Positions 26,834 through 41,244 of a stretch of 64,000 nucleotides of DNA are shown here, piece after piece. Origin of the DNA: Devriesea agamarum (lineage in GTDB: Bacteria; Actinomycetota; Actinomycetes; Actinomycetales; Dermabacteraceae); the NCBI RefSeq assembly GCF_900070355.1, contig NZ_LN849456.1, positions 1 to 64,000 on the forward strand, in the 5' to 3' direction. Every line of letters begins with the position of its first letter. Within the stretch, counting starts at the first letter, position 1. Position numbers and translations under genes: made by a program. The notes beneath the pieces are model-generated. The model worked only from the letters and a program-made list of their open reading frames with translations. It did not search any database and was not told the DNA's origin.

Positions 26834-27074
26834 GCGTGTCGCTGCGGTTGCCCACCCCTCTGCGCAGTCGAAGTGCCCATAAAGAGCGCCGGTGACCAGG
26901 CAAAGAGCTTCGGTTTCATAACGGTTGCTTTCGGCCCGTTTTAGTCCCACGGAATGGCCCTTGGCGGACGGTAGCCTATTGCGTGTCCAGAAATCGGGTG
27001 CTGTCGCCCGGCCTGGAATCCCTGACCGGAGCCTAGACCTGGGGCAACCGGCCCGTTCACCCTGGAGGATGCAC

Positions 27075-28181
27075 GTGAAAAACCTGACTCGCACCGCGGC
27101 GATCACCGGTGCCATGGCCCTTTTGCTTGGAGCGTGTGGCGCGCCCCCGAGCTCGTCGAACTCGTCCAGTTCAGGGGCTTCCGACGGCAGCTCAGCGGGC
27201 AAATTTAAAGCGTGCATGGTGTCCGACTCTGGCGGTTTTGACGATAAGTCGTTCAACGAATCGGGTAAGCGTGGTCTTGATGCCGCTCAAAAGCAACTGA
27301 GCATCGAAACCCAGACAGCGCAGTCCAAGAGCAACTCCGAATTCCTTCCCAACATCAACAACCTGGTGGGTTCCAAGTGTGACCTGGTGTTCACCGTTGG
27401 GTACCTTCTGGCTACCGCCACGGGTGATGCGGCGAAGGCAAACCCCAATGTCGAGTTCGCCATTATTGACTCCACTGCGCAGGATAAGAGCGGAAAGTCG
27501 ATTGCGCTAAAGAACGTCAAGCCGATTGCTTTTGACACCGCACAAGCCGCGTTCCTCGCCGGATACCTTTCAGCCGGGATGTCCAAGACCGGCAAAGTCG
27601 CGACCTACGGCGGCATGAAGATCCCGTCGGTCACCGTATTCATGGATGGCTTCGCCGACGGGGTCAAGAAGTACAACGAGGTGCACGGCAAAGACGTGCA
27701 CCTGCTCGGCTGGGAAAAAGCGAAGCAGGACGGCTCCTTCGTCGGCAGCTTTGAAGACCAGACCAAGGGCAAGGCTTTGACCGAAGGGTTCTACACCCAG
27801 GGCGCCGATATCGTGATGCCCGTGGCAGGACCGGTGGGAGCCGGAACGCTTGCCGCAGCTAAAGAAGCTCCGGGCCGCATGGTGGTCTGGGTCGACGCGG
27901 ACGGTGTGCTGACCAACCCGGATGCGACGGGCGTTATTCTCACCTCGGTGATGAAAGGTATTTCACCCGCGGTCGAAGATGTCGCCAAGCAAGCCAAGGA
28001 CAACAAGTTCGACAGCAAGGACTATGTTGGAACGCTGAAGAACGGCGGGGTCGATCTCTCGCCTTACCACGACTTCGACAGCAAAGTTCCGCAGGAGCTC
28101 AAGGACGAAGTTAAGCAGCTCAAGCAGGACATCATCGACGGAAAGATCAAGGTCGAGTCCGTCAGTTCCCCCAAGGCATAA
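27075..28181 (+). CDS. BMP-family substrate-binding lipoprotein (nucleoside ABC transporter)
   Basis: Lipoprotein of 368 residues. The signal peptide MKNLTRTAAITGAMALLLGAC has a lipobox LGAC with Cys21, followed by a Ser-rich spacer. The body is of the Med/BMP (PnrA) type: SGGFDDKSFNESGKRG, FTVGYLLATATGDAA, AQAAFLAGYLSAGMSKTGKVATYGG, and PVAGPVGAGT. The family binds purine and pyrimidine nucleosides. GTG 27075 has GGAGG six bases upstream; ATG 27069 touches it. An ABC ATPase and two permeases follow, then cytidine deaminase and thymidine phosphorylase, which supports nucleoside uptake. Confidence 0.93.
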   Translation: MKNLTRTAAITGAMALLLGACGAPPSSSNSSSSGASDGSSAGKFKACMVSDSGGFDDKSFNESGKRGLDAAQKQLSIETQTAQSKSNSEFLPNINNLVGSKCDLVFTVGYLLATATGDAAKANPNVEFAIIDSTAQDKSGKSIALKNVKPIAFDTAQAAFLAGYLSAGMSKTGKVATYGGMKIPSVTVFMDGFADGVKKYNEVHGKDVHLLGWEKAKQDGSFVGSFEDQTKGKALTEGFYTQGADIVMPVAGPVGAGTLAAAKEAPGRMVVWVDADGVLTNPDATGVILTSVMKGISPAVEDVAKQAKDNKFDSKDYVGTLKNGGVDLSPYHDFDSKVPQELKDEVKQLKQDIIDGKIKVESVSSPKA

Positions 28182-28210
28182 GGCGAACCATCCTTAGCCT
28201 TATAGAGCCA

Positions 28211-28244
28211 ACGCGCCCGTGGGTTTGGATATCCACGGGCGCGT
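28211..28244. terminator. Hairpin after the lipoprotein gene
   Basis: A perfect 12-bp stem (ACGCGCCCGTGG at 28211-28222, complement at 28233-28244) with a 10-nt loop, 30 bp after the stop. It would reduce read-through into the transporter genes, giving excess binding protein, or end the transcript. Confidence 0.8.
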
Positions 28245-28274
28245 TCGCTGGAAAGGTGAGCCATTGCCTGACGC

Positions 28275-28293
28275 TTAGGTTAGCTATACCTCT
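28275..28293 (+). promoter_or_regulatory. Possible DtxR/IdeR-like iron box
   Basis: TTAGGTTAGCTATACCTCT matches the 19-bp DtxR/IdeR consensus (TTAGGTTAGSCTAACCTAA) at 14 positions; the left half is perfect. It lies about 195 bp before the ABC ATPase gene. The rest of the 307-bp gap (28182-28488) shows no gene. Iron control of a nucleoside transporter would be unexpected, so this may be chance or belong to a -10 region. Confidence 0.35.
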
Positions 28294-28488
28294 CCTTAGT
28301 GTTGTTGTGGCGCACGCGATACCGATGACCGGGTCCTGCGCTGGACCTGGTAATCTCCGGTCGTCACTAATCGCCCGTTGCATGAGAGTTTCATGAAATG
28401 GGTATCAGGCCAGCGGACCATCCGGTCGCCCGCACGAGGCGCATAGACGCCCCCGTGCACCGACGAGAAATGAGCGAGACGCGAGACC

Positions 28489-30060
28489 ATGGAGCTCGAA
28501 CTCAAAGGCATTACGAAGATCTTCGGATCGCTCGTAGCCAACGATCACATCGACTTAACGGTGAAGGCCGGTGAAATCCACTGCCTCCTTGGCGAGAACG
28601 GCGCCGGTAAGTCCACGCTAATGAACGTCCTCTACGGGCTGTACCAACCCGATGAAGGCGAGATCTTGCTGGACGGCAAACCCGTGTCCTTCTCAGGCCC
28701 GGGTGAAGCGATGGCTGCGGGGATCGGTATGGTGCACCAGCACTTCATGCTGATCCCGGTGTTCACCGTCGCCGAAAACGTCGTGCTCGGTCATGAACCG
28801 TTGAAAAAAGGTTTCCTCGACCTCGACGCAGCGCGCAAGCTCGTGCGGGAAATCTCCGACCGGTTCGGCTTCGATATTGACCCCGACGCCAAGGTTGAAG
28901 ATCTACCGGTCGGTGCACAGCAGCGCGTCGAAATCATTAAGGCGCTGTCCCGGCGGGCTGAGGTGCTGGTCCTGGACGAGCCCACTGCGGTTCTCACCCC
29001 GCAGGAAACCGATGAACTGATGTCGATCATGTGCCAGCTGCGCGACGCCGGCACGTCGATCGTGTTCATCACCCACAAATTGCGTGAGGTGAGGGCCGTT
29101 GCCGACCGAATCACCGTCATCCGCCGGGGCGCCGTGGTTGGGACCGCAGATCCTTCCTCTGACCAGTCTGAACTCGCCTGTCTGATGGTGGGGCGTGCCG
29201 TCCGACTCGATGTTGAAAAAGCCCCGGCCGAGCCCGGAGAAGCCGCGCTGGTGGTTGAAGACCTCACCGTGCGCGAGGCCAGCGGAACCGTGGCGGTTGA
29301 TCAGGCTAGCTTCAGTGTTCACCGGGGAGAAATCCTCGGCATTGCCGGTGTCCAAGGCAACGGTCAAACCGAACTCACCGAGGCTCTGCTCGGTCTCGCC
29401 GACGATGTCGTCGGATCCATTCGCCTGGATGGACAGGAACTCGTTGGACGCAGCACCCGCCAGATCCTGAACGCCGGGGTCGGTTTCGTGCCCGAAGACC
29501 GCACCCACGACGCCCTGGTGCCCACCTTCTCCGTCGCCGAAAATCTTGTGCTCGACCAGCACGACCGGCAGCCGTTCGGTGACGCGGTCAGCTTGCACCC
29601 GCGCGCCATCCGTGCAAATGCTCACGATCGGGTCAAGGAATACGACATCCGCACGTCGGGTATCGACCATGCGGTGACCACTCTGTCAGGCGGTAACCAG
29701 CAAAAGGTTGTGATGGCACGGGCATTGGGACGCAATCTCAGCCTGTTCATCGCAGCTCAGCCGACCCGCGGTGTTGACGTGGGATCCATCGAATTCCTGC
29801 ACGGACGCATCGTTACCGAACGCGACAAAGGCACGCCCGTCATTATCGTCTCCACCGAATTAGACGAGATCTGCCAGTTGTCTGATCGGATCGCGGTCAT
29901 GTATCGCGGCGCGATCCTCGGCATCGTGCCGGGTCACGAAAGCCGAGATGTGCTCGGGCTCATGATGGCGGGATACACCGCCGACGCGGCTCGAGAGGCT
30001 GTGGCGGCCGGCGCCCGCACCGCCGACTCGAAGCTTGCCGAAGAAGGAGAAATCGCGTGA
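28489..30060 (+). CDS. Nucleoside ABC transporter, duplicated ATPase subunit
   Basis: Protein of 523 residues with two ABC domains in tandem, as in RbsA/NupO-type ATPases. The first has Walker A GENGAGKST (about 36-44), the degenerate signature LPVGAQQRVE and Walker B VLVLDEPTAVLT. The second has a degenerate Walker A (GVQGNGQTE, no Lys), a full signature LSGGNQQKV, and FIAAQPTRGVD in place of the usual FDEPT. This asymmetry is normal for the family. It energises the two permeases encoded next; the GTG start of the first overlaps its stop. Confidence 0.93.
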   Translation: MELELKGITKIFGSLVANDHIDLTVKAGEIHCLLGENGAGKSTLMNVLYGLYQPDEGEILLDGKPVSFSGPGEAMAAGIGMVHQHFMLIPVFTVAENVVLGHEPLKKGFLDLDAARKLVREISDRFGFDIDPDAKVEDLPVGAQQRVEIIKALSRRAEVLVLDEPTAVLTPQETDELMSIMCQLRDAGTSIVFITHKLREVRAVADRITVIRRGAVVGTADPSSDQSELACLMVGRAVRLDVEKAPAEPGEAALVVEDLTVREASGTVAVDQASFSVHRGEILGIAGVQGNGQTELTEALLGLADDVVGSIRLDGQELVGRSTRQILNAGVGFVPEDRTHDALVPTFSVAENLVLDQHDRQPFGDAVSLHPRAIRANAHDRVKEYDIRTSGIDHAVTTLSGGNQQKVVMARALGRNLSLFIAAQPTRGVDVGSIEFLHGRIVTERDKGTPVIIVSTELDEICQLSDRIAVMYRGAILGIVPGHESRDVLGLMMAGYTADAAREAVAAGARTADSKLAEEGEIA

Positions 30061-31367
30061 AGTCCTCGCCGACACCACTGGCCCAGAAAATAGGGCGCAG
30101 CAACGTCCTGGTGGTGATCGCCTCGTTCATCGTGGCATTTCTTATCGGGTCGATTCTGATCCTGGTTGTCAACCCCCAGGTTCAAAGCAGCGTGCAGTAT
30201 TTCTTTGCGCGCCCCACCGACACCTTTGTGGCGGGCTGGAACGCGATCGCTGACGCCTACTCCGCAATGTTCCGCGGAGCGATCTTCGATTATCACGCTC
30301 CGGATCCCATCGCCCAGTGGCGCCCCTTAACCGAGACCTTGGTTGTGGCAACGCCCCTGATCATTGCCTCCATCGGTATCGGGATCGGTTTCCGCGCCGG
30401 TCTGTTTAACATCGGTGGAACCGGTCAGCTGATCGTCGGCGCGATCGCCTCCGCGTGGGTTGGTTTCGCCCTGCACATGCCGCCCGTTATCCACCTGCTG
30501 GTGGCGCTGCTCGCGGGCGTGGTCGCGGGCGGTATCTGGGGCGGTATCGCTGGGTTCCTAAAAGCGCGCTTTGGTTCCAATGAGGTCATCACGACCATCA
30601 TGCTGAACTGGGTCGCCACCTACTTGCTGGCATATCTGCTGACCACCAAGGCATTTACTGGTGAAAATATTGCCCAGCCGACATCCCCCGCGGTCGACAA
30701 CACCGCGACCCTGCCGCTGATGTTCCCGAGCCTCGGCTACCGCCTGCACTGGGGGCTTGTGATCGTGGCCTTGGCGGCTGTGTTCCTGTGGTGGCTGATG
30801 AACCGCTCTGTTCTCGGTTTCCGTTTCCGGGCAGTTGGCTCCAACCCGCGGGCCTGTGAGGTCGCCGGTGTCAACGTCGGCAGGACTTCTTTCTACGTGA
30901 TGATGGTCGCCGGTGCCGTGGTCGGTCTCGCGGGTGCAGTGCACCTGCTGGGCACGGAACAACGGCTCGATGACGGAGTCGCCGGAAGCGTCGGCTTCGA
31001 TGCGATCACGGTGGCGCTACTCGGGCGGTCCGGACCGGTGGGCATTGTGCTGGCGGGTCTGCTGTTCGCGGCATTGGGCGTGGGTGGACGCTACATGGAA
31101 ACCACCCAGGGTGTCCCCATCGACCTGGTCCAGGTGATCCAGGCATTGGTCGTGCTGTTTATTGCGGCACCTCCGCTGGTTCGCACGATGACCGGCCTTG
31201 GATGGCTGTCCCGGCGAGGACAATCAACCTCAGCTGAGGAATCCGTAGACACCAGCAAAACCACTATTGCCGATACGGAGAAGTCCGGAAACGGCTCCGG
31301 GGTGACCGGTACAGACAAAGCACAGGCTGCCGACCAACAGCCCGGTACGACGGGAGAGACGCGATGA
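30057..31367 (+). CDS. Nucleoside ABC transporter permease 1 (NupP-like)
   Basis: Protein of 436 residues with about nine membrane segments and the BPD_transp_2 core (GIGFRAGLFNIGGTGQL, FGSNEVITTIMLNW, VGSNPRACEVAGVNVGR). It pairs with the next gene product to form the channel. After the last segment there is a hydrophilic tail of about 45 residues rich in Ser, Thr and Gly, absent from most relatives. It overlaps both neighbours by four bases (GTGA and ATGA). Confidence 0.93.
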   Translation: MKSSPTPLAQKIGRSNVLVVIASFIVAFLIGSILILVVNPQVQSSVQYFFARPTDTFVAGWNAIADAYSAMFRGAIFDYHAPDPIAQWRPLTETLVVATPLIIASIGIGIGFRAGLFNIGGTGQLIVGAIASAWVGFALHMPPVIHLLVALLAGVVAGGIWGGIAGFLKARFGSNEVITTIMLNWVATYLLAYLLTTKAFTGENIAQPTSPAVDNTATLPLMFPSLGYRLHWGLVIVALAAVFLWWLMNRSVLGFRFRAVGSNPRACEVAGVNVGRTSFYVMMVAGAVVGLAGAVHLLGTEQRLDDGVAGSVGFDAITVALLGRSGPVGIVLAGLLFAALGVGGRYMETTQGVPIDLVQVIQALVVLFIAAPPLVRTMTGLGWLSRRGQSTSAEESVDTSKTTIADTEKSGNGSGVTGTDKAQAADQQPGTTGETR

Positions 31368-32719
31368 GCACCACCTCCATAACCAATGGGCCGCTGCCCG
31401 ACGCCGATGCCCCGATTCAGCCGGTGATCGCACAAGAACGCCTGAAATCGTGGTGGCACACGCCAACCACACTGACGGTGTTCGGTCTGATTGCGCTGAT
31501 TGGATTCGGTATTCTCGCCCCCGGCGGCAGCTGGGATTCAACCCTGCATATCGCGACAGACCGCGACCTGCTGGCCGTGCCCGACATCGCTGTGCCAGCG
31601 CAGCTCACCTCGGTGATTCTGGCCGTGGTCTGCTTGGTGATTGCAGGTGTGACCTGGTGGCTCGCCTTCCGCTATCCGGTGGTGCGCCCCGCCCTGCGGG
31701 CAACCCTGCTGGTTCTCTTCGGGATTTTCTGGGTGTTGTCATTCCTGGTTTGGATCGTGGTAGGGCAAACCCTCGATCTCACCGCACTGTTGCAGTCCAC
31801 ACTGGCACTCGCAGTGCCGCTGGTGTTCGGCTCACTCTCGGGTGTTCTGAGTGAACGAGCAGGCGTGGTGAATATTGCGATTGAAGGGCAGCTGCTGTTC
31901 GGAGCATTTGGAGCCGCGATCCTCGCCTCGATGACTGGTAACCCATGGCTTGGAATCATCGCCGCACCGATTATGGCGCTGGTCATTGGCGTGCTGCTGG
32001 CCCTGTTCGCAGTTGGCTACCACGTGCAGCAGATCATTGTCGGCGTCGTTCTCAACGTGCTGGCGATTGGTCTGACCAGCTTCTTCTTCAGCACGGTGAT
32101 GAAGGCTCATCCCGAGATGCTCAACACCCCGACGCGTCTGCCAAATCTTCCAATCCCGGGTCTTTCGCACATCCCCCTGATTGGGCCGGTGCTGTTTAAC
32201 CAGAACATCCTCGTGTATCTGATGTACGTGATCGTGGTGGTTTTGACCGTCGCGCTCTACCGCACCCGCTGGGGTCTGCGCGTTCGAGCCGTGGGCGAGC
32301 ATCCTCTGGCTGCCGATACCGTTGGTATTAATGTGAGCCGGACCCGCTGGTCAAACGTGCTTTTGGGCTCTGCTGTGGCAGGTCTTGGCGGCGCTACCCT
32401 GACTATCGGCACCGGTGTCGCCTTCGGTGAGGAAATGTCAGCGGGTAAGGGCTATATTGCGCTGGCTGCCATGATTCTTGGCCGCTACAACCCGATTGGT
32501 GCAGTGTGCGCGGCGCTGTTCTTCGCGTTCGCCGACGCCTTACAGCTGCGGCTTGGGATTTTGAAGACGGTGGCGGTTCCCGACGGGCTAGACAAGTTCA
32601 CGTTGCCGGGTGAGTTCCTGCTGATGCTGCCGTACATCGTGACGCTGTTTGCGGTCGCCGGATTCGTCGGCCGTGTGCGGGTGCCCGCAGCCGACGGAGA
32701 GCCCTACATTAAGCAGTGA
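31364..32719 (+). CDS. Nucleoside ABC transporter permease 2 (NupQ-like)
   Basis: Protein of 451 residues. The last ~300 residues are the permease core (SGVLSERAGVVNIAIEGQLL, VGEHPLAADTVGINVSR, AAMILGRYNPIGA). The N-terminal ~140 residues add three membrane segments before it, longer than the ~320-residue NupQ, a form known in actinobacteria. It is the last transporter gene; a hairpin and cdd follow. Confidence 0.93.
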   Translation: MSTTSITNGPLPDADAPIQPVIAQERLKSWWHTPTTLTVFGLIALIGFGILAPGGSWDSTLHIATDRDLLAVPDIAVPAQLTSVILAVVCLVIAGVTWWLAFRYPVVRPALRATLLVLFGIFWVLSFLVWIVVGQTLDLTALLQSTLALAVPLVFGSLSGVLSERAGVVNIAIEGQLLFGAFGAAILASMTGNPWLGIIAAPIMALVIGVLLALFAVGYHVQQIIVGVVLNVLAIGLTSFFFSTVMKAHPEMLNTPTRLPNLPIPGLSHIPLIGPVLFNQNILVYLMYVIVVVLTVALYRTRWGLRVRAVGEHPLAADTVGINVSRTRWSNVLLGSAVAGLGGATLTIGTGVAFGEEMSAGKGYIALAAMILGRYNPIGAVCAALFFAFADALQLRLGILKTVAVPDGLDKFTLPGEFLLMLPYIVTLFAVAGFVGRVRVPAADGEPYIKQ

Positions 32720-32748: not shown

Positions 32749-32782
32749 GCGCGGTGACATTTGCGACCGCATGTCACCGCGC
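32749..32782. terminator. Hairpin between transporter operon and cdd
   Basis: A perfect 12-bp stem (GCGCGGTGACAT at 32749-32760, complement at 32771-32782) with a 10-nt loop, 30 bp after the permease stop. It could terminate or attenuate transcription into cdd. Confidence 0.7.
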
Positions 32783-32831
32783 GTCGGCACGAGGCGATAT
32801 TTCGCGTGCCTCGACGGCGGGGGACGCAGCG

Positions 32832-33326
32832 ATGACCGGGAAAGTTGATTACATGGATAATGCGGGCTTAAATGCTCATCCACATTGCACCTCTGACCAG
32901 GGGCGGAACCGCGACGCCGATGCTCAGCGCACCGAGTGGGATGGGCTCCTTCACCACGCACGAACGATGCGTCAGCGTGCCTATGCGCCATATTCACGAT
33001 TCCAGGTGGGTGCTGCTGCGCTCACAGATGACGGCCGACTGATCGGTGGCTGCAACGTTGAAAACGCTGGGTATGGCGTGACTCTCTGCGCCGAATGCGG
33101 TTTAATCTCAGATCTCATCGCTGGCGGAGGGGGCAAACTCACCGCGTTCGTGTGCGTTGGCGCGAATGAAAATCACGATGGCCCAGCTCCCATTGTGATG
33201 CCATGCGGACGATGCCGTCAGCTGCTCTCCGAGCATTCTGCCCCCAGTTTGGTGGTGCTAACTCCCAAAGGGGAGCGCACCATGGCAGAAGTCCTGCCCG
33301 AGGCCTTCGGACCGGACTCTCTGTAG
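32832..33326 (+). CDS. cdd: Cytidine deaminase
   Basis: Protein of 164 residues. The catalytic motif is CNVENAGYGVTLCAECG (zinc Cys and catalytic Glu) with PCGRCRQLL supplying the other zinc cysteines. YAPYSRFQVGAAAL binds the ribose. It converts cytidine and deoxycytidine to uridine and deoxyuridine. ATG 32832 follows GGGGGA. A frame open back to 32754 covers the hairpin and is unlikely to be translated. About 35 extra residues precede the family's usual start. Its place after a nucleoside importer and before deoA marks a pyrimidine salvage group. Confidence 0.93.
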   Translation: MTGKVDYMDNAGLNAHPHCTSDQGRNRDADAQRTEWDGLLHHARTMRQRAYAPYSRFQVGAAALTDDGRLIGGCNVENAGYGVTLCAECGLISDLIAGGGGKLTAFVCVGANENHDGPAPIVMPCGRCRQLLSEHSAPSLVVLTPKGERTMAEVLPEAFGPDSL

Positions 33327-33449: not shown

Positions 33450-34802
33450 ATGACCGAAAATCAGCACGTTGCTGAGCCCACGTCCACTACCGATGCCGGG
33501 ACATCTGCGCCACACACAGCTGAGGCTTTTGACGCGGTTGACATTATCCGCACTAAACGTGACGGGGGTGAGCTCACTCCCGAACAAATTGACTGGGTTA
33601 TTGATGCCTTTACCCGCGGAGTGGTGGCTGATTACCAGATGTCAGCATTGGGGATGGCAATTCTCCTGCGGGGGATGAACCGCGGTGAAATTGCGCGCTG
33701 GACCCACGCCATGATCGCCTCCGGCGAGCGTATGGATTTCTCCTCCCTCAGCCGCACTACCGTAGATAAGCACTCCACGGGCGGGGTCGGTGACAAAATC
33801 ACCTTGCCGCTGGCACCGTTGGTTGCCTGCTACGGCGTTGCGGTGCCACAGCTGTCGGGTCGAGGGCTCGGCCACACCGGCGGTACCTTAGACAAACTTG
33901 AATCCATTCCCGGTTGGCGGGCGCTGCTGTCCAACGAGGAAATGATGCGGCAGCTGGAGGATGTCGGCGCGGTGATTTGCGGGGCGGGAAGCGGCCTAGC
34001 GCCAGCAGACAAAAAGCTTTACGCCCTGCGCGATGTCACCGCGACGGTCGAGGCGATTCCGCTGATTGCTTCGTCCATCATGAGCAAGAAGATTGCCGAA
34101 GGCACCGCGAGCCTGGTGCTTGACGTCAAAGTTGGCTCGGGTGCCTTTATGAAGACCGAGGATAGCGCGCGTGAGCTCGCCCGCACCATGGTCGATCTCG
34201 GCACCGATGCCGGGGTCAAGACAATCGCTTTACTCACGGACATGTCGACCCCACTTGGTTTGACCGCTGGTAATGCGCTGGAGGTGCGCGAGAGCCTTGA
34301 GGTCTTGGCCGGAGGTGGTCCCAAGGACGTGGTTGATCTGACGGTGGCGCTGGCCTGCGAGATGCTTGGAGCAGCGGGAGTCACGGGTGTTGATCCGGCC
34401 GAGGCGCTCGCTGACGGCCGGGCTATGGATGTGTGGCGTCGGATGATTACCGCTCAGGGTGGGGATCCCGATGCGCCGCTACCGGTTGCCTCCCACACCC
34501 ATGAGGTGCGGGCTGATGCCGACGGTATGGTGACCGCTGTGGACGCGATGCCGGTGGCATTGGCTGCATGGAGGCTGGGCGCTGGGCGCGAACGGCAAGG
34601 TGAGCCGGTGCAGTTCGGGGCCGGGGTGGAGCTACACAAGACCGTTGGAGACAGCGTGCGGGCTGGCGACGTGCTGGCGACCCTGCACACCGACACTCCG
34701 GAACGGTTCGATCGTGCGCTGTCCTCACTTGAGGGTGCGTGGAGCATCGATGACGTTCCGTCGGTGCCAGAACGCACCATCGTGCTGGACCGGATTTCTT
34801 AA
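33450..34802 (+). CDS. deoA: Thymidine (pyrimidine-nucleoside) phosphorylase
   Basis: Protein of 450 residues. The glycine-rich phosphate and nucleoside site is KHSTGGVGDKITLPLAPL and SGRGLGHTGGTLDKLESIPG, followed by KKIAEGTASLVLDVKVGSGAFMK. It cleaves thymidine or uridine with phosphate to base plus (deoxy)ribose 1-phosphate. ATG 33450 has GGAGG eight bases upstream. A hairpin follows. Confidence 0.95.
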   Translation: MTENQHVAEPTSTTDAGTSAPHTAEAFDAVDIIRTKRDGGELTPEQIDWVIDAFTRGVVADYQMSALGMAILLRGMNRGEIARWTHAMIASGERMDFSSLSRTTVDKHSTGGVGDKITLPLAPLVACYGVAVPQLSGRGLGHTGGTLDKLESIPGWRALLSNEEMMRQLEDVGAVICGAGSGLAPADKKLYALRDVTATVEAIPLIASSIMSKKIAEGTASLVLDVKVGSGAFMKTEDSARELARTMVDLGTDAGVKTIALLTDMSTPLGLTAGNALEVRESLEVLAGGGPKDVVDLTVALACEMLGAAGVTGVDPAEALADGRAMDVWRRMITAQGGDPDAPLPVASHTHEVRADADGMVTAVDAMPVALAAWRLGAGRERQGEPVQFGAGVELHKTVGDSVRAGDVLATLHTDTPERFDRALSSLEGAWSIDDVPSVPERTIVLDRIS

Positions 34803-36843: not shown

Positions 36844-37668
36844 TCAGACCGCGATAGGGGCTTTAATCGTCGGGTGCGGGTCGTATCCATCGACGCAGAT
36901 ATCGTCAATCGCGTAATCGAATAGCGATGCGGGTTTACGAGCAAAACACAGTGTCGGATACGGGCGGGCAGTGCGAGATAACTGTTCGCGCACCTGCTCG
37001 AGGTGATTGTCGTAAATATGGATGTCGCCGCCCGTCCAAATAAATTCGCCCGGTGCATAGCCCAATTGGTCTGCCATCATGCAGGTCAGCAGCGAATAAC
37101 TTGCGATATTGAACGGAACCCCAAGAAAGAGATCGGCACTACGCTGATACAGCTGACACGATAAAGATGGCCGGTCACCGGTATCGGATGCTGGACGCAC
37201 ATAGAACTGCACAAAGGCGTGGCACGGCGGCAGCGCCATGTTCTCCAGCTCGCCGACATTCCACGCCGACACAATGTGGCGGCGTGAATGAGGGTTCGTG
37301 CGCAAGGAATTCAAAACAGCGCTGATCTGGTCCACCGTGCGTCCATCCGCGGTGGGCCACGCCCGCCATTGCACGCCGTAGATAGGGCCGAGTTCACCCT
37401 CCTCATCGGCCCATTCGTTCCAAATTCGCACACCTTGCTCTTGGAGCCAGCGCACATTTGAATCGCCCCGCAAGAACCACAGCAGCTCTGCCACCACGCT
37501 GCGAAGATGCACTTTCTTCGTGGTGATGAGAGGGAACGAGTCCGACAGGTCAAAACGCATCTGCCGCCCAAAGACCGACCGAGTACCGGTTCCGGTGCGA
37601 TCGGGCACAGCAACTCCATCGGCGAGGACTTCCGCGAGGAGATCCTCATAGGGCGTAGGCACCGTCAT
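36844..37668 (-). CDS. thyA: Thymidylate synthase
   Basis: Protein of 274 residues. The catalytic Cys is in [13 protein letters not shown]; folate and dUMP sites are seen in [37 protein letters not shown] and the C-terminal PIAV. It methylates dUMP to dTMP with methylene-THF. The start overlaps the stop of the kinase-Nudix gene (ATGA), so the two are co-translated. No dihydrofolate reductase gene is next to it, unlike in many bacteria. Confidence 0.97.
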
Positions 37669-38837
37669 CTAAACCTCCTGGCAAGCTCGGGCATCACATG
37701 GTCGGTCGATAACGGCGCAAGGCGAATGCCCTCCAGCGGCTGATGCAGAGGGAACCACAGATGCTCAGCCAATTCTGCGCGCACAATCACAGCCGAATTA
37801 GCGGTGAGAATACCTTCCGGAGCGAGGAAGACGTGGGACCGCACCCGAGTGTTGGGCTCATTGGCGGCCTCCGCTTCAAAATCACCGAGATGCTCAATGC
37901 TCTCAGGATCGACGGTAATCCCGAGTTCTTCGTGAATCTCACGGACCGCGCACGCTTCGCCGCTTTCACCAGGCTCCAGTTTTCCACCCGGCAACATGAA
38001 CGCGGACGTATTGCGTTTTCGGACCATTAGGACCTCAGGACCATTCTCACCGCGACGCACGAAACACAGGGCCGCGATTCGCAGGACCTGAGCAGGAGGA
38101 CTTGCGGCAGGGCTAGGGGCTGAGGGCTGGAGACAGGAAGGGTCCGTATTGCCGCGACCGGCAGCTGCGCCTACACGCTGGGCAGCTGTGCTTGCGCGCT
38201 GGGATGCAGCGCTCGTGTGGTCCTGTTCGATGCACTTGCACAGCTCCCGTTCCGCAGCGCGTAAACCAAACGGCCGCATTCCCGCATCTCGCCACCGGCG
38301 CACTAGCGACGCCTCCTGAAGCAGCAGACCCAGGCCCCGACGCACCAGAGTCAGCGGAGGTTTCCGTCGCTGTCGAAAATCCCGGATCAAACGCAAAGTA
38401 AACGTGAGCAACCGGGGACGATGCAACACCACAGCGTCGGCGAGAAGTTTTCGTTCCCGCAGCGGCGCAATGAGCTCCGCGGCAAAAATTCCCTCGGCCA
38501 GCACAATCGGGTGATCTCCGAGGCACAGACGCTTGGTTCCAACCCTTTGTGAACGAGGAATGGAATAAACCGGCGTGTCGAGCTCATCGACAGAGCACGC
38601 TGACTCTAGAGCCTTAAGCGCGTACTCGGCATTCCACGACGCCGGATCATCCCAGTCCACAATGCCAAACCGGTGCGGCAAACCCGGTTCATCGTGATCG
38701 CGATAAAAATCGTCGAGCTCTATCACCGGGATACCCAAGCGACGCCCCAATAGACCTTTACCGCTGCCCGATGGGCCGGCAAGCAACACAATGCGCCGAC
38801 GGGGGCGTATATCTACCCCACGAGATTCACAGAACAC
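37665..38837 (-). CDS. Fusion of a uridine-kinase-like P-loop domain and a Nudix hydrolase
   Basis: Protein of 390 residues in two halves. Residues 1 to about 210 are a P-loop kinase resembling uridine kinase: Walker A GPSGSGKG with Lys27, [23 protein letters not shown], and a lid-like [11 protein letters not shown]. Residues about 250-390 are a Nudix hydrolase with a complete Nudix box at 285-307 (G-x5-E-x7-REIHEELGI). An Ala/Ser/Gly-rich linker with imperfect repeats ([14 protein letters not shown]) joins them. The GTG start at 38837 has no strong signal. It is coupled to thyA and follows purine nucleoside phosphorylase, so a role in nucleotide salvage or pool cleaning is inferred; the substrates of both halves are unknown. 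Confidence 0.85.
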
Positions 38838-38860: not shown

Positions 38861-39691
38861 TCAGTGGTTTTCTTCGGCAAGGCGGGTGGTGACCTCCGCG
38901 AGCAGATGCGAGATCCGCGGCGCCGCCTCCTGACCAGCCTCAATCACTTCCTGATGGGATAGCGGAGAATCGCTGATACCCGCGGCTAGGTTTGTGACCA
39001 GCGATATCCCCAGCACACACAGACCAGCTTCACGTGCCGCAATGGCTTCGAGTGCGGTGGACATCCCCACAAGCGTTGCCCCCACGGTTTGCGCCATACG
39101 CACCTCGGCAGGGGTCTCGTAGTTAGGCCCGCTGAACTGCATGTACACGCCCTCAGGAAGGTTCGGATCGACCTCGTGGGCGATCTCCCGCCAGCGCGGG
39201 GTGTATAGGTCGGTCATATCAATGAACGTGGCACCGGACAGCGGAGTGGCTCCGGTGTGGTTGATCTGGTCTGCGATCAACACCGGTGAACCGGCCCCAA
39301 TCGACGGATCGACACCGCCGCAACCGTTAGTAAGCACGATGCCCCGGCACCCGAGCGCAGCAGCGGTGCGCACACCGTGTACGACCGGCGCAACCCCGTG
39401 ACCTTCGTAAAAATGAGTGCGTGCGCCAATGACCAGAACATGCGCTCCGCCGCGGGTGCGGACCGCGCGCAGGGTCCCGACGTGCCCCTCCAAAGCGGGC
39501 CGACGGAAACCCGGAATGCTGGGAGCTTCGTCCTGCCACATCGTCTCACCGAGAAGATCTGCCGCGGCGGACCATCCCGATCCGAGAACGACGGCGATGT
39601 CGAACGAGGAGACATTGCTGCGTTGGGCGATAGTCGCGGCGGCATCGCGAGCGAGATCATATGGCGAAGAAGGCTCAGTGCTCATAGTCAT
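38861..39691 (-). CDS. punA: Purine nucleoside phosphorylase (trimeric type)
   Basis: Protein of 276 residues with the PNP signatures VVLGSGWSAAADLL, GHVGTLR, HFYEGHG, LTNGCGGVDP, the substrate segment QFSGPNYETPAEVR and VGMSTALEAIAAREAGL. It splits purine nucleosides with phosphate. A frame stays open to 39808, but ATG 39691 gives the family N-terminus. It is followed 23 bp later by the kinase-Nudix and thyA genes, forming a salvage operon. Confidence 0.93.
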   Translation of the reverse strand: MTMSTEPSSPYDLARDAAATIAQRSNVSSFDIAVVLGSGWSAAADLLGETMWQDEAPSIPGFRRPALEGHVGTLRAVRTRGGAHVLVIGARTHFYEGHGVAPVVHGVRTAAALGCRGIVLTNGCGGVDPSIGAGSPVLIADQINHTGATPLSGATFIDMTDLYTPRWREIAHEVDPNLPEGVYMQFSGPNYETPAEVRMAQTVGATLVGMSTALEAIAAREAGLCVLGISLVTNLAAGISDSPLSHQEVIEAGQEAAPRISHLLAEVTTRLAEENH

Positions 39692-39765
39692 GAATCTACC
39701 TGACACAGAAGGGACGGCAGATCCCAAGTTGACGTGATTCTCTCGCTCGCACCCTTTAACGCGCG

Positions 39766-41244
39766 GTGTGGGCCACAATAGTGGATGTGACCGACCCGAG
39801 TATTGCACTGCCCCCGGAATCTGACCGTGTTCGACTGAGCGGCGATCAGCCCCATGTGGCGGTGATCGGAGGTGGACCAGGCGGCTATGAAGCGGCGCTG
39901 ACCGCCGCGCGCCTGGGAGCTGACGTCACGCTGGTCGAGAGCCAGGGAGTAGGTGGAGCCGCCGTTCTCACCGACGTAGTGCCGTCTAAAACCCTGATTG
40001 CCACCGCTGAAGTTCTCGATCTCGTGGCCGATTCTCATGCGTTGGGTATCCGCGGTGAGGGAGGCCGCGATCTTGTGGCGGGTGCGAGCCTGTGCGTGGA
40101 CCTCGATAAGGTCAATGAGCGCGTGCGGGAACTGGCAGCCGCCCAGTCGCGGGACATCACTGCGTCCTTGACGGCGGCAGGGGTGCGGATCGTGTGTGGG
40201 CGCGGTGCCCTAGCAGGACCCCGTCAGATCCGGGTTGAGCTCAGTGACGGCGGTGAAGAAGTCCTCACCGCCGATGTTGGACTGCTAGCGGTAGGGGCAC
40301 GACCGCGTCAGCTTCCTACGGCACCAATCGACGGTGAACGCATCCTCACCTGGACCCAGCTCTACAACCTGACAGAGCTTCCCGCGCACCTGGTGGTGGT
40401 TGGATCGGGCGTCACCGGAGCCGAGTTTGCCAGTGCTTACCGGGCGCTTGGTAGCCAGGTCACGTTGGTGTCCTCGCGCGATCAAGTGCTGCCAGGGGCC
40501 GACCGCGATGCGGCAGCGGTTTTGGAAAATGCCTTCGTCCGACGTGGAATCACAGTGCGTTCACGTACGCGCGCGATCGCGGTGCGCCGTGACGGTGACG
40601 GTGTTCAGGTTGAACTCTCAGACGGTGACATTGTGCAGGCTAGCCATGCGTTGATGGCGGTCGGTGCCGTCCCGGCAACTGACGGGCTGGGCTTAGAACA
40701 GGCGCATGTGCGGTGTTCGGCCAGCGGTCATATCCAGGTTGATAGGGTATCCCGCACGAACGTGCGCGGACTGTACGCGGCGGGCGACTGCACCGGCATC
40801 TATCCACTGGCATCGGTAGCGGCTATGCAGGGACGCATCGCGATGTATCACGCCCTCGGGGATGCGGTTTCGCCGCTAATCGCCCGACAGGTTGCCTCGG
40901 CCACGTTCACCGCACCGGAAGTGGCGACCGTCGGCTATACGGAACAGGACATCGAGGACGGTCTGATTCCCGGTGAGGTGCGGTTGTTCCCACTTTCCAC
41001 CAACCCCAGGGCCAAGATGCAGGGGGTGTCCGAAGGTTTCGTAAAACTGATTGCCCGCCCAGGTTCGGGGACGGTGATCGGGGGTGTTGTGGTGGCCCCG
41101 CGCGCCAGCGAACTTATTCACCCCATTTCATTGGCGGTCAGTCACCGCATGACCGTGGATGAGCTGGCAGCGGCGTTTACGGTCTATCCCTCGCTGTCTG
41201 GCTCCCTTGCCGAGGCAGCTCGGAGTCTCCACCTCAGCGTGTGA
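39766..41244 (+). CDS. LpdA-like flavoprotein disulfide-reductase family NAD(P)H dehydrogenase
   Basis: Up to 492 residues with the FAD fold VIGGGPGGYEAALTAARLG, the NAD fold VVVGSGVTGAEFASAYRALG, and LYAAGDCTG. The redox-active CxxxxC is missing: the site reads GVGGAAVLTDVVPSK, so it cannot be a true dihydrolipoamide dehydrogenase. It resembles mycobacterial LpdA (Rv3303c), a quinone reductase. The start is uncertain: GTG 39766, 39781 and 39787 are all possible and none has a good ribosome-binding site; a leaderless transcript is possible. Divergent from punA. Confidence 0.85.
   Translation: MWATIVDVTDPSIALPPESDRVRLSGDQPHVAVIGGGPGGYEAALTAARLGADVTLVESQGVGGAAVLTDVVPSKTLIATAEVLDLVADSHALGIRGEGGRDLVAGASLCVDLDKVNERVRELAAAQSRDITASLTAAGVRIVCGRGALAGPRQIRVELSDGGEEVLTADVGLLAVGARPRQLPTAPIDGERILTWTQLYNLTELPAHLVVVGSGVTGAEFASAYRALGSQVTLVSSRDQVLPGADRDAAAVLENAFVRRGITVRSRTRAIAVRRDGDGVQVELSDGDIVQASHALMAVGAVPATDGLGLEQAHVRCSASGHIQVDRVSRTNVRGLYAAGDCTGIYPLASVAAMQGRIAMYHALGDAVSPLIARQVASATFTAPEVATVGYTEQDIEDGLIPGEVRLFPLSTNPRAKMQGVSEGFVKLIARPGSGTVIGGVVVAPRASELIHPISLAVSHRMTVDELAAAFTVYPSLSGSLAEAARSLHLSV

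What the first reader, a model, noticed from the sequence alone, without database searches (positions are those of the whole stretch)
37665..38837. Uridine-kinase-like / Nudix fusion coupled to thyA
Two nucleotide-acting domains are fused and co-translated with thymidylate synthase. The Nudix part could hydrolyse dUTP/dCTP or damaged nucleotides, and the kinase part could phosphorylate a (deoxy)nucleoside, steering pools to dUMP. The linker has repeat-like Ala/Ser/Arg segments.
Basis: partly seen in the sequence, partly recalled or inferred. Interest (0 to 1): 0.5.

Follow-up and report, generated by a model that had tools for sequence, protein, structure and literature searches.

The report
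Uridine-kinase-like and Nudix fusion enzyme
A gene joins a kinase resembling those that salvage RNA building blocks to an enzyme part that typically destroys faulty nucleotides; the pairing is a trademark of one small bacterial family, while its link to the thymidine-making gene was seen only in this genome.

Summary
ORF 37665-38837(-) encodes a UCK-fold P-loop kinase (residues ~13-209), a loose linker and a Nudix domain with an intact Nudix box (252-367). Its stop overlaps the thyA start (ATGA) and thyA's Shine-Dalgarno lies inside its 3' end. The fusion occurs in 44 of 45 kinase-bearing genomes of the family (apparently Dermabacteraceae); in 35 of 35 other genomes compared the domains are apart. 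Usual neighbours are nucleoside uptake/breakdown genes. Adjacency to thyA was seen in 1 of 25 ThyA genomes. The kinase motifs match ribonucleoside kinases, but the base-reading His is missing and Udk equivalog cut-offs are failed. Best reading: pyrimidine-ribonucleoside salvage kinase fused to a nucleotide-cleaning hydrolase; substrates unproven; no comparative support for steering to dUMP. By-product: this genome has ThyA but no ThyX or canonical DHFR found, whereas the 24 other ThyA genomes have DHFR next to thyA. A new variant of known kinds.

The parts
37665..38837 (-). kinase-Nudix fusion gene, GTG start, 390 aa
38211..38801 (-). P-loop kinase domain of uridine-cytidine kinase fold (residues 13-209)
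   Evidence: AlphaFold 10-residue blocks 11-210 all pLDDT 86 or more; best structural match human UCK2, Z 18.5, rmsd 3.0-3.3, 191 residues; PRK05480 E 1.1e-9
38757..38777 (-). P-loop GPSGSGK (residues 21-27); G21, G24, G26, K27 invariant in 41 of 41 aligned rows
38085..38210 (-). low-complexity linker (residues 210-251)
   Evidence: variable in length and sequence; 21-nt tandem repeat at 38160-38203
37737..38084 (-). Nudix domain (Pfam PF00293, residues 252-367)
   Evidence: E 5.8e-18
37917..37985 (-). Nudix box [23 protein letters not shown] (residues 285-307)
   Evidence: catalytic pattern G-x5-E-x7-RE-x2-EE found in 30 of 30 fused rows (29 distinct genes)
37674..37679 (-). AGGAGG, apparent Shine-Dalgarno of thyA inside the fusion gene's 3' end
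36844..37668 (-). thyA, thymidylate synthase, ATGA overlap with the fusion; adjacency seen only in this genome among 25 ThyA genomes of its family
38861..39808 (-). purine-nucleoside phosphorylase, 23 nt upstream of the fusion start
33450..34802 (+). deoA, thymidine/pyrimidine-nucleoside phosphorylase; tail-to-tail neighbour of the fusion in relatives
32754..33326 (+). cdd, cytidine deaminase
26925..32719 (+). BMP-type ABC importer (binding protein, ATPase, two permeases), probably for nucleosides
   Evidence: best named matches are a putative B6 transporter, below cut-off; nucleoside role inferred from gene order

Best explanation
A salvage enzyme of nucleoside-scavenging Dermabacteraceae-type bacteria. 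The N-terminal half is a uridine/cytidine-kinase-like enzyme that phosphorylates an imported ribonucleoside, most likely uridine and/or cytidine, to its 5'-monophosphate. The C-terminal half is a Nudix pyrophosphohydrolase that probably removes aberrant nucleoside triphosphates. The fusion probably arose once in the family from two genes that elsewhere stand apart. In this genome alone the gene lacks the leaderless-type promoter motif of its relatives and sits as the middle gene of a PNP / kinase-Nudix / thyA row, after a stand-alone thyA came in; thyA probably rides on it for expression and is not functionally tied to it. Shown: anatomy, active-site motifs, distribution in the genomes compared, gene order, absence of the -10 motif, ATGA overlap. 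Inferred: both substrates, the cleaning role, single origin, promoter loss, transcription as an operon, gain of thyA by transfer.
For: Kinase fold: UCK1, UCK2 and Thermus UCK fill the top 15 structural rows, Z 17.3-18.5 over 184-194 residues; a profile search finds a uridine kinase (9y3v, 3e-13) and UCK2 (9e-12) first. Invariant in 41 of 41 aligned rows (40 distinct proteins): P-loop G/G/G/K, D42, Y45, R46, D61, D63, Y91, E115, R149, R152, D153, R158. 0 of 47 family genomes have a match above the TIGR00235 Udk cut-off, against 7 of 14 control genomes; the window genome's only two matches are this gene and a 416-aa frame, so this is its leading uridine-kinase candidate. In 17 of 17 fetched regions the kinase gene lies next to deoA with cdd and the importer genes beyond; PNP is in 16 of 17 stretches, thyA in 0 of 17; a phosphomutase and deoC lie between PNP and the fusion in L035. 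Of 10 kinase-only loci outside the family, 4 had a neighbour scanned: adenosine deaminase, aldehyde dehydrogenase or cdd/deoA in 3 (L040, L041, L045), an unrelated gene in L036. Fusion in 44 of 45 kinase-bearing family genomes; in 35 of 35 other-family genomes shown in both match lists the two domains are over 170 kb apart or on different contigs. Nudix box intact in 30 of 30 fused rows. TANNNT exactly 14 nt before a start codon in 29 of 30 family loci, the window being the exception.
Against: The UCK2 base-reading His (His117, recalled) corresponds to a column with nine different residues and no His in 41 rows (register), so the base may differ. Scores are far below the uridine-kinase equivalog cut-offs (38 against 180, 33 against 220), and the window protein alone fails Pfam PF00485. 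Every family genome has a uracil phosphoribosyltransferase (47 of 47), so uridine can also be salvaged without a kinase. Many genus-g2 genomes have a further Udk-like match below cut-off in a frame of about 216-300 aa that could do this job there. An annotated Thermotoga uridine kinase showed no NMP-forming activity (PMC10248530, abstract), so resemblance is no proof. Two family genomes, G031 (a 520-contig draft) and G044, lack the kinase. In G006 the Nudix part is gone, with only a C-terminal remnant in another frame, and the kinase is kept. The Nudix half of the model is poor (pLDDT 35-61). No activity was measured.
Confidence: 0.55

Rival explanations
1. One reading: the kinase makes dUMP from deoxyuridine and the Nudix part hydrolyses dUTP/dCTP, together feeding ThyA.
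For: ATGA overlap and a Shine-Dalgarno inside the fusion suggest coupled translation with thyA here; cdd and deoA lie in the same region.
Against: thyA adjacency in 1 of 25 ThyA genomes; 18 of 19 kinase-bearing ThyX genomes keep the fusion; the ribose-holding residues of UCK are kept (roles recalled); no deoxynucleoside-kinase or thymidine-kinase family among the Pfam matches.
Confidence: 0.07
2. The kinase acts on something other than a pyrimidine nucleoside (a purine nucleoside, nicotinamide riboside, a sugar or sugar phosphate from nucleoside breakdown), and the Nudix part works on the matching dinucleotide or nucleotide sugar.
For: Base-reading His not conserved; below the Udk cut-offs; phosphoribulokinase, pantothenate kinase and nicotinamide riboside kinase share the fold at Z 12-16; neighbours in L035 are of the kind that breaks nucleosides down to sugar phosphates.
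Against: UCK structures and sequences are the best matches; the UCK motif set is invariant in 41 rows.
Confidence: 0.3

Closest known systems
Uridine-cytidine kinase (human UCK2, Thermus thermophilus UCK; Udk, TIGR00235)
   Same: Fold (Z 18.5 and 18.3), P-loop, DxFYR, WD[DH]P, PxY, EG and RxxRD motifs.
   Different: Below Udk equivalog cut-offs; base-reading His replaced by variable residues; fused to Nudix.
MutT / 8-oxo-dGTP diphosphatase and related Nudix hydrolases (PF00293)
   Same: Complete Nudix box; the best NCBIfam match of the C-terminal half is MutT, E 1e-7; solved Nudix relatives include plant Nudix hydrolase 1, diphosphoinositol phosphohydrolases and MutT types.
   Different: 32 bits against a cut-off of 97.9 for MutT; substrate cannot be named from sequence.
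Plant TTM1, uridine-kinase-like domain fused to a triphosphate tunnel metalloenzyme
   Same: A UCK-like domain in tandem with a phosphate-hydrolysing domain; matched.
   Different: The partner domain is a tunnel metalloenzyme (entry title), not Nudix; different lineage.
thyA-DHFR pairs of genus g2 of the same family
   Same: ThyA of the same enzyme family, 63-64% identical in the 3 compared.
   Different: There thyA is followed by DHFR in 24 of 24; here thyA follows the kinase-Nudix gene and no PF00186 DHFR is found in the genome.

Membership tests
Uridine kinase Udk/UCK (TIGR00235, PRK05480) | score above the curated equivalog cut-off | tested here: not met
   33.1 against 220.3 bits and 38.1 against 180 bits; 0 of 47 family genomes over the TIGR00235 cut-off, 7 of 14 control genomes over it
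Uridine kinase Udk/UCK (TIGR00235, PRK05480) | UCK fold with P-loop, catalytic Asp and LID arginines | tested here: met
   Z 18.5 to UCK2; residues invariant in 41 of 41 rows; residue roles recalled
Uridine kinase Udk/UCK (TIGR00235, PRK05480) | base-reading His (His117 of UCK2, position recalled) | tested here: not met
   aligned column holds R, A, T, E, L, Q, D, V, S, never His, in 41 rows; register rests on the profile alignment
Uridine kinase Udk/UCK (TIGR00235, PRK05480) | phosphorylation of uridine or cytidine | not testable with these tools
   needs enzyme assay
Phosphoribulokinase/uridine kinase family (Pfam PF00485) | Pfam match over the cut-off | tested here: inconclusive
   window protein 11 bits against 22; 16 of 19 members of alignment A2 match at E <= 0.01, best 8.2e-8
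Nudix hydrolase (Pfam PF00293) | Pfam match over the cut-off | tested here: met
   65.6 bits against 21.1
Nudix hydrolase (Pfam PF00293) | catalytic Nudix box G-x5-E-x7-RE-x2-EE | tested here: met
   30 of 30 fused rows, 29 distinct genes
MutT 8-oxo-dGTP diphosphatase (TIGR00586) | score above the equivalog cut-off | tested here: not met
   32 against 97.9 bits
Deoxynucleoside kinase / thymidine kinase | match to a deoxynucleoside-kinase or thymidine-kinase Pfam model | tested here: not met
   only NUDIX, NUDIX_2 and PRK listed at E <= 1 for the window protein; none among the 13 families matched by 19 kinase domains at E <= 0.01
Thymidylate synthase ThyA (neighbour gene) | score above the equivalog cut-off | tested here: met
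   444 against 327 bits for NF002497

The most novel reading that the evidence does not exclude
The fusion is an 'admit and proofread' salvage gate: the kinase traps scavenged ribonucleosides, including oxidised or modified ones, and the tethered Nudix domain destroys the aberrant nucleotides that such promiscuous salvage brings into the pool. In this genome the gate drives an operon with a thyA that works without any canonical dihydrofolate reductase.
Probability: 0.15. Interest if true: 0.6.

Novelty: new variant of a known kind. Interest (0 to 1): 0.3.

Why it matters
A uridine-kinase-like domain fixed to a Nudix domain across a bacterial family would be a natural coupling of nucleoside salvage to nucleotide-pool cleaning; the start of a 2026 abstract seen in a search listing (PMC12887539) states that salvage kinases let damaged nucleosides into the dNTP pool. 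The ThyA-without-DHFR genome gives a concrete test of how dihydrofolate is recycled when FolA is missing. The case also shows how a one-genome gene row can suggest a pathway link that relatives do not share.

Tried and rejected
dUMP-steering: rejected as the main reading, because thyA adjacency was seen in this genome only (1 of 25) and 18 of 19 kinase-bearing ThyX genomes keep the fusion. Reading-frame artefact: rejected, since 30 fused rows (29 distinct genes) were translated without a stop. Plasmid origin of the fusion: tblastn of the whole fusion gave 43 plasmid records, none covering 80% of it, the ten shown all Nudix-only; the kinase part alone gave none. Origin of thyA: 937 plasmid records carry a ThyA match, best 69.5% in Tsukamurella, a little nearer than the three family ThyAs compared (63-64%); thyA and the permease have 57% GC against 60% for the window. 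Compatible with transfer; no tree was built, and phage records were not searched. Literature: searches (3 papers; none; none; 10 of 32 shown; 7) listed no paper on a uridine-kinase/Nudix fusion; only titles and abstract starts were seen, apart from passages of PMC13118837, which names udk and NUDIX proteins separately. Nudix specificity from solved structures: no clear nearest subfamily (60 of 95 shown). The structural look covers residues 4-211 only; the Nudix half was not predicted on its own. RibD_C as the missing DHFR: this genome has 2 hits, no more than ThyX relatives such as G043, so no candidate stands out; in M. tuberculosis the DHFR activity of RibD is described as quite low (PMC10812664, passages).

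Full report
What is there. The minus-strand ORF 37665..38837 (390 aa, GTG start) lies 23 nt after a purine-nucleoside phosphorylase gene and overlaps thyA by ATGA. AGGAGG, the apparent thyA ribosome site, is inside the last codons of the fusion. Residues 252-367 are a Nudix domain (PF00293, E 5.8e-18). Residues about 13-209 are a kinase: weak by Pfam for this protein alone (E 0.38), clear by the uridine-kinase models of NCBIfam (E 1.1e-9 and 4.1e-8, both far below their equivalog cut-offs). The linker holds one short tandem repeat and looks like a spacer: 11-65 aa long in 30 fused rows (29 distinct genes), 17% identical on average to the window.

Kinase identity. A profile of 19 kinase domains finds a uridine kinase entry 9y3v (3e-13), human UCK2 (9e-12) and Thermus uridine kinase (1.6e-10) first in the PDB. 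The predicted kinase half is confident; the Nudix half is not, as the alignment that could be used held one fused relative. Fifteen UCK rows lead the structural comparison at Z 17.3-18.5; phosphoribulokinases, pantothenate kinases and nicotinamide riboside kinases follow at about 12-16. P-loop, Asp42, Tyr45-Arg46, Asp61/Asp63, Tyr91, Glu115, Arg149, Arg152-Asp153 and Arg158-Lys159 are invariant in 41 aligned rows; the column aligned with UCK2 His117 (position and role recalled) has nine residue types and no His. [quoted passage not shown] that it is this same position is recalled. So the protein works like a UCK, but I do not file it as a Udk.

Distribution. The window genome is one 2,958,880-base contig. 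Its family is probably Dermabacteraceae: contig CYUG01000011.1 (Helcobacillus/Dermabacter record, 695,305 bases) equals in length the contig of G040 and encodes the identical protein (L028 and L035); that family holds Brachybacterium, Dermabacter, Devriesea and Helcobacillus. The Devriesea agamarum genome is reported as 2,953,346 bases (PMC4543515, whole text), so the window may be from it; this is an inference from size. In 47 family genomes the kinase is found in 45 (not G031, G044); in 44 of those 45 the Nudix match lies in the same open frame (7 single spanning hits, 37 pairs with equal frame length), and in G006 there is none. In G006 the kinase ORF is 224 aa, and a C-terminal Nudix-like remnant (PLMVRRSLPALRAR) follows in another frame: the fusion came first and the Nudix part decayed there. 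In 396 genomes sampled from the order (family members included), 241 have a match to the fusion and 179 to the Nudix part at the thresholds used. In the 35 genomes outside the family that appear in both shown match lists, kinase and Nudix lie over 170 kb apart or on different contigs in 35 of 35. The fusion therefore looks family-specific; unlisted genomes were not checked.

Neighbourhood. I fetched 17 regions around the gene in relatives. In 17 of 17 the kinase gene is tail-to-tail with deoA, followed by cdd and the importer genes; PNP is in the stretch in 16 of 17 (at times several kb away); thyA in 0 of 17. In L035 a phosphomutase (PGM/PMM domains) and deoC lie between PNP and the fusion. 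Of 10 kinase-only loci outside the family, 4 had a neighbour scanned: adenosine deaminase and aldehyde dehydrogenase (L040); cdd, deoA, adenosine deaminase and a uracil-DNA-glycosylase-family gene (L041); aldehyde dehydrogenase (L045); and a lactate-utilisation-type protein, not salvage (L036). In the window genome the phosphomutase homologue is elsewhere (position 1,468,181), and thyA plus an amino-acid permease stand between the fusion and deoA. Before the fusion start, 29 of 30 family loci have TANNNT exactly 14 nt upstream of a start codon, as in leaderless genes; three of these needed a start 6 or 42 nt further in than first taken (26 of 30 before that). The window gene alone lacks it.

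thyA. ThyA is present in 25 of 47 family genomes (genera g1 and g2 only), ThyX in 20, none has both, two have neither (G016, G031). In none of the 24 other ThyA genomes does thyA lie by the fusion: in each it is on another contig or more than 800 kb away. In 24 of 24 g2 ThyA genomes a DHFR match (PF00186) above cut-off lies directly after thyA; 0 of 20 ThyX genomes have one above the cut-off; the window genome has none even at E <= 1 (9 of 14 control genomes ring). So thyA here seems to have replaced thyX without bringing folA. ThyA without a recognised DHFR has a precedent: Bartonella henselae in Table 1 of PMC1971073 (passages). This genome's two RibD_C hits are as many as in some ThyX relatives.

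Function. Best reading: pyrimidine-ribonucleoside salvage kinase plus nucleotide-cleaning Nudix, with thyA as a passenger (confidence 0.55). Against it: base-reading His absent, cut-offs failed, uracil phosphoribosyltransferase in 47 of 47 genomes offers another route, many g2 genomes have a further Udk-like match below cut-off, an annotated Thermotoga uridine kinase was inactive (abstract of PMC10248530), two family genomes lack the kinase and one lost the Nudix part.

Novelty. Five literature searches listed no paper on such a fusion; they cover open PubMed Central only, and one search showed 10 of its 32 papers. It is a new combination of known domains.

Noticed in passing
window 36844-37668 and the whole genome G000: ThyA is present but neither ThyX nor a PF00186 dihydrofolate reductase is found in a one-contig, 99.99% complete genome; all 24 other ThyA genomes of the family searched have DHFR directly after thyA.
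   Followed up: partly
L026:1436-2148 (G006): The fusion has decayed: kinase kept at 224 aa, Nudix part lost except for a C-terminal remnant in another frame.
   Followed up: yes
upstream of the kinase start in 29 family loci (L006-L034, one locus per genome): A strictly placed -10-like TANNNT, 14 nt before a start codon, suggests leaderless transcripts.
   Followed up: partly
L063, L064, L065 (thyA regions of three g2 genomes): thyA and a DHFR gene form an adjacent pair far from the fusion; gain of the pair in g2 and of thyA alone in g1 look like separate events.
   Followed up: partly
L041:4597-5421: A uracil-DNA-glycosylase-superfamily gene overlaps the end of a kinase-only homologue.
   Followed up: no
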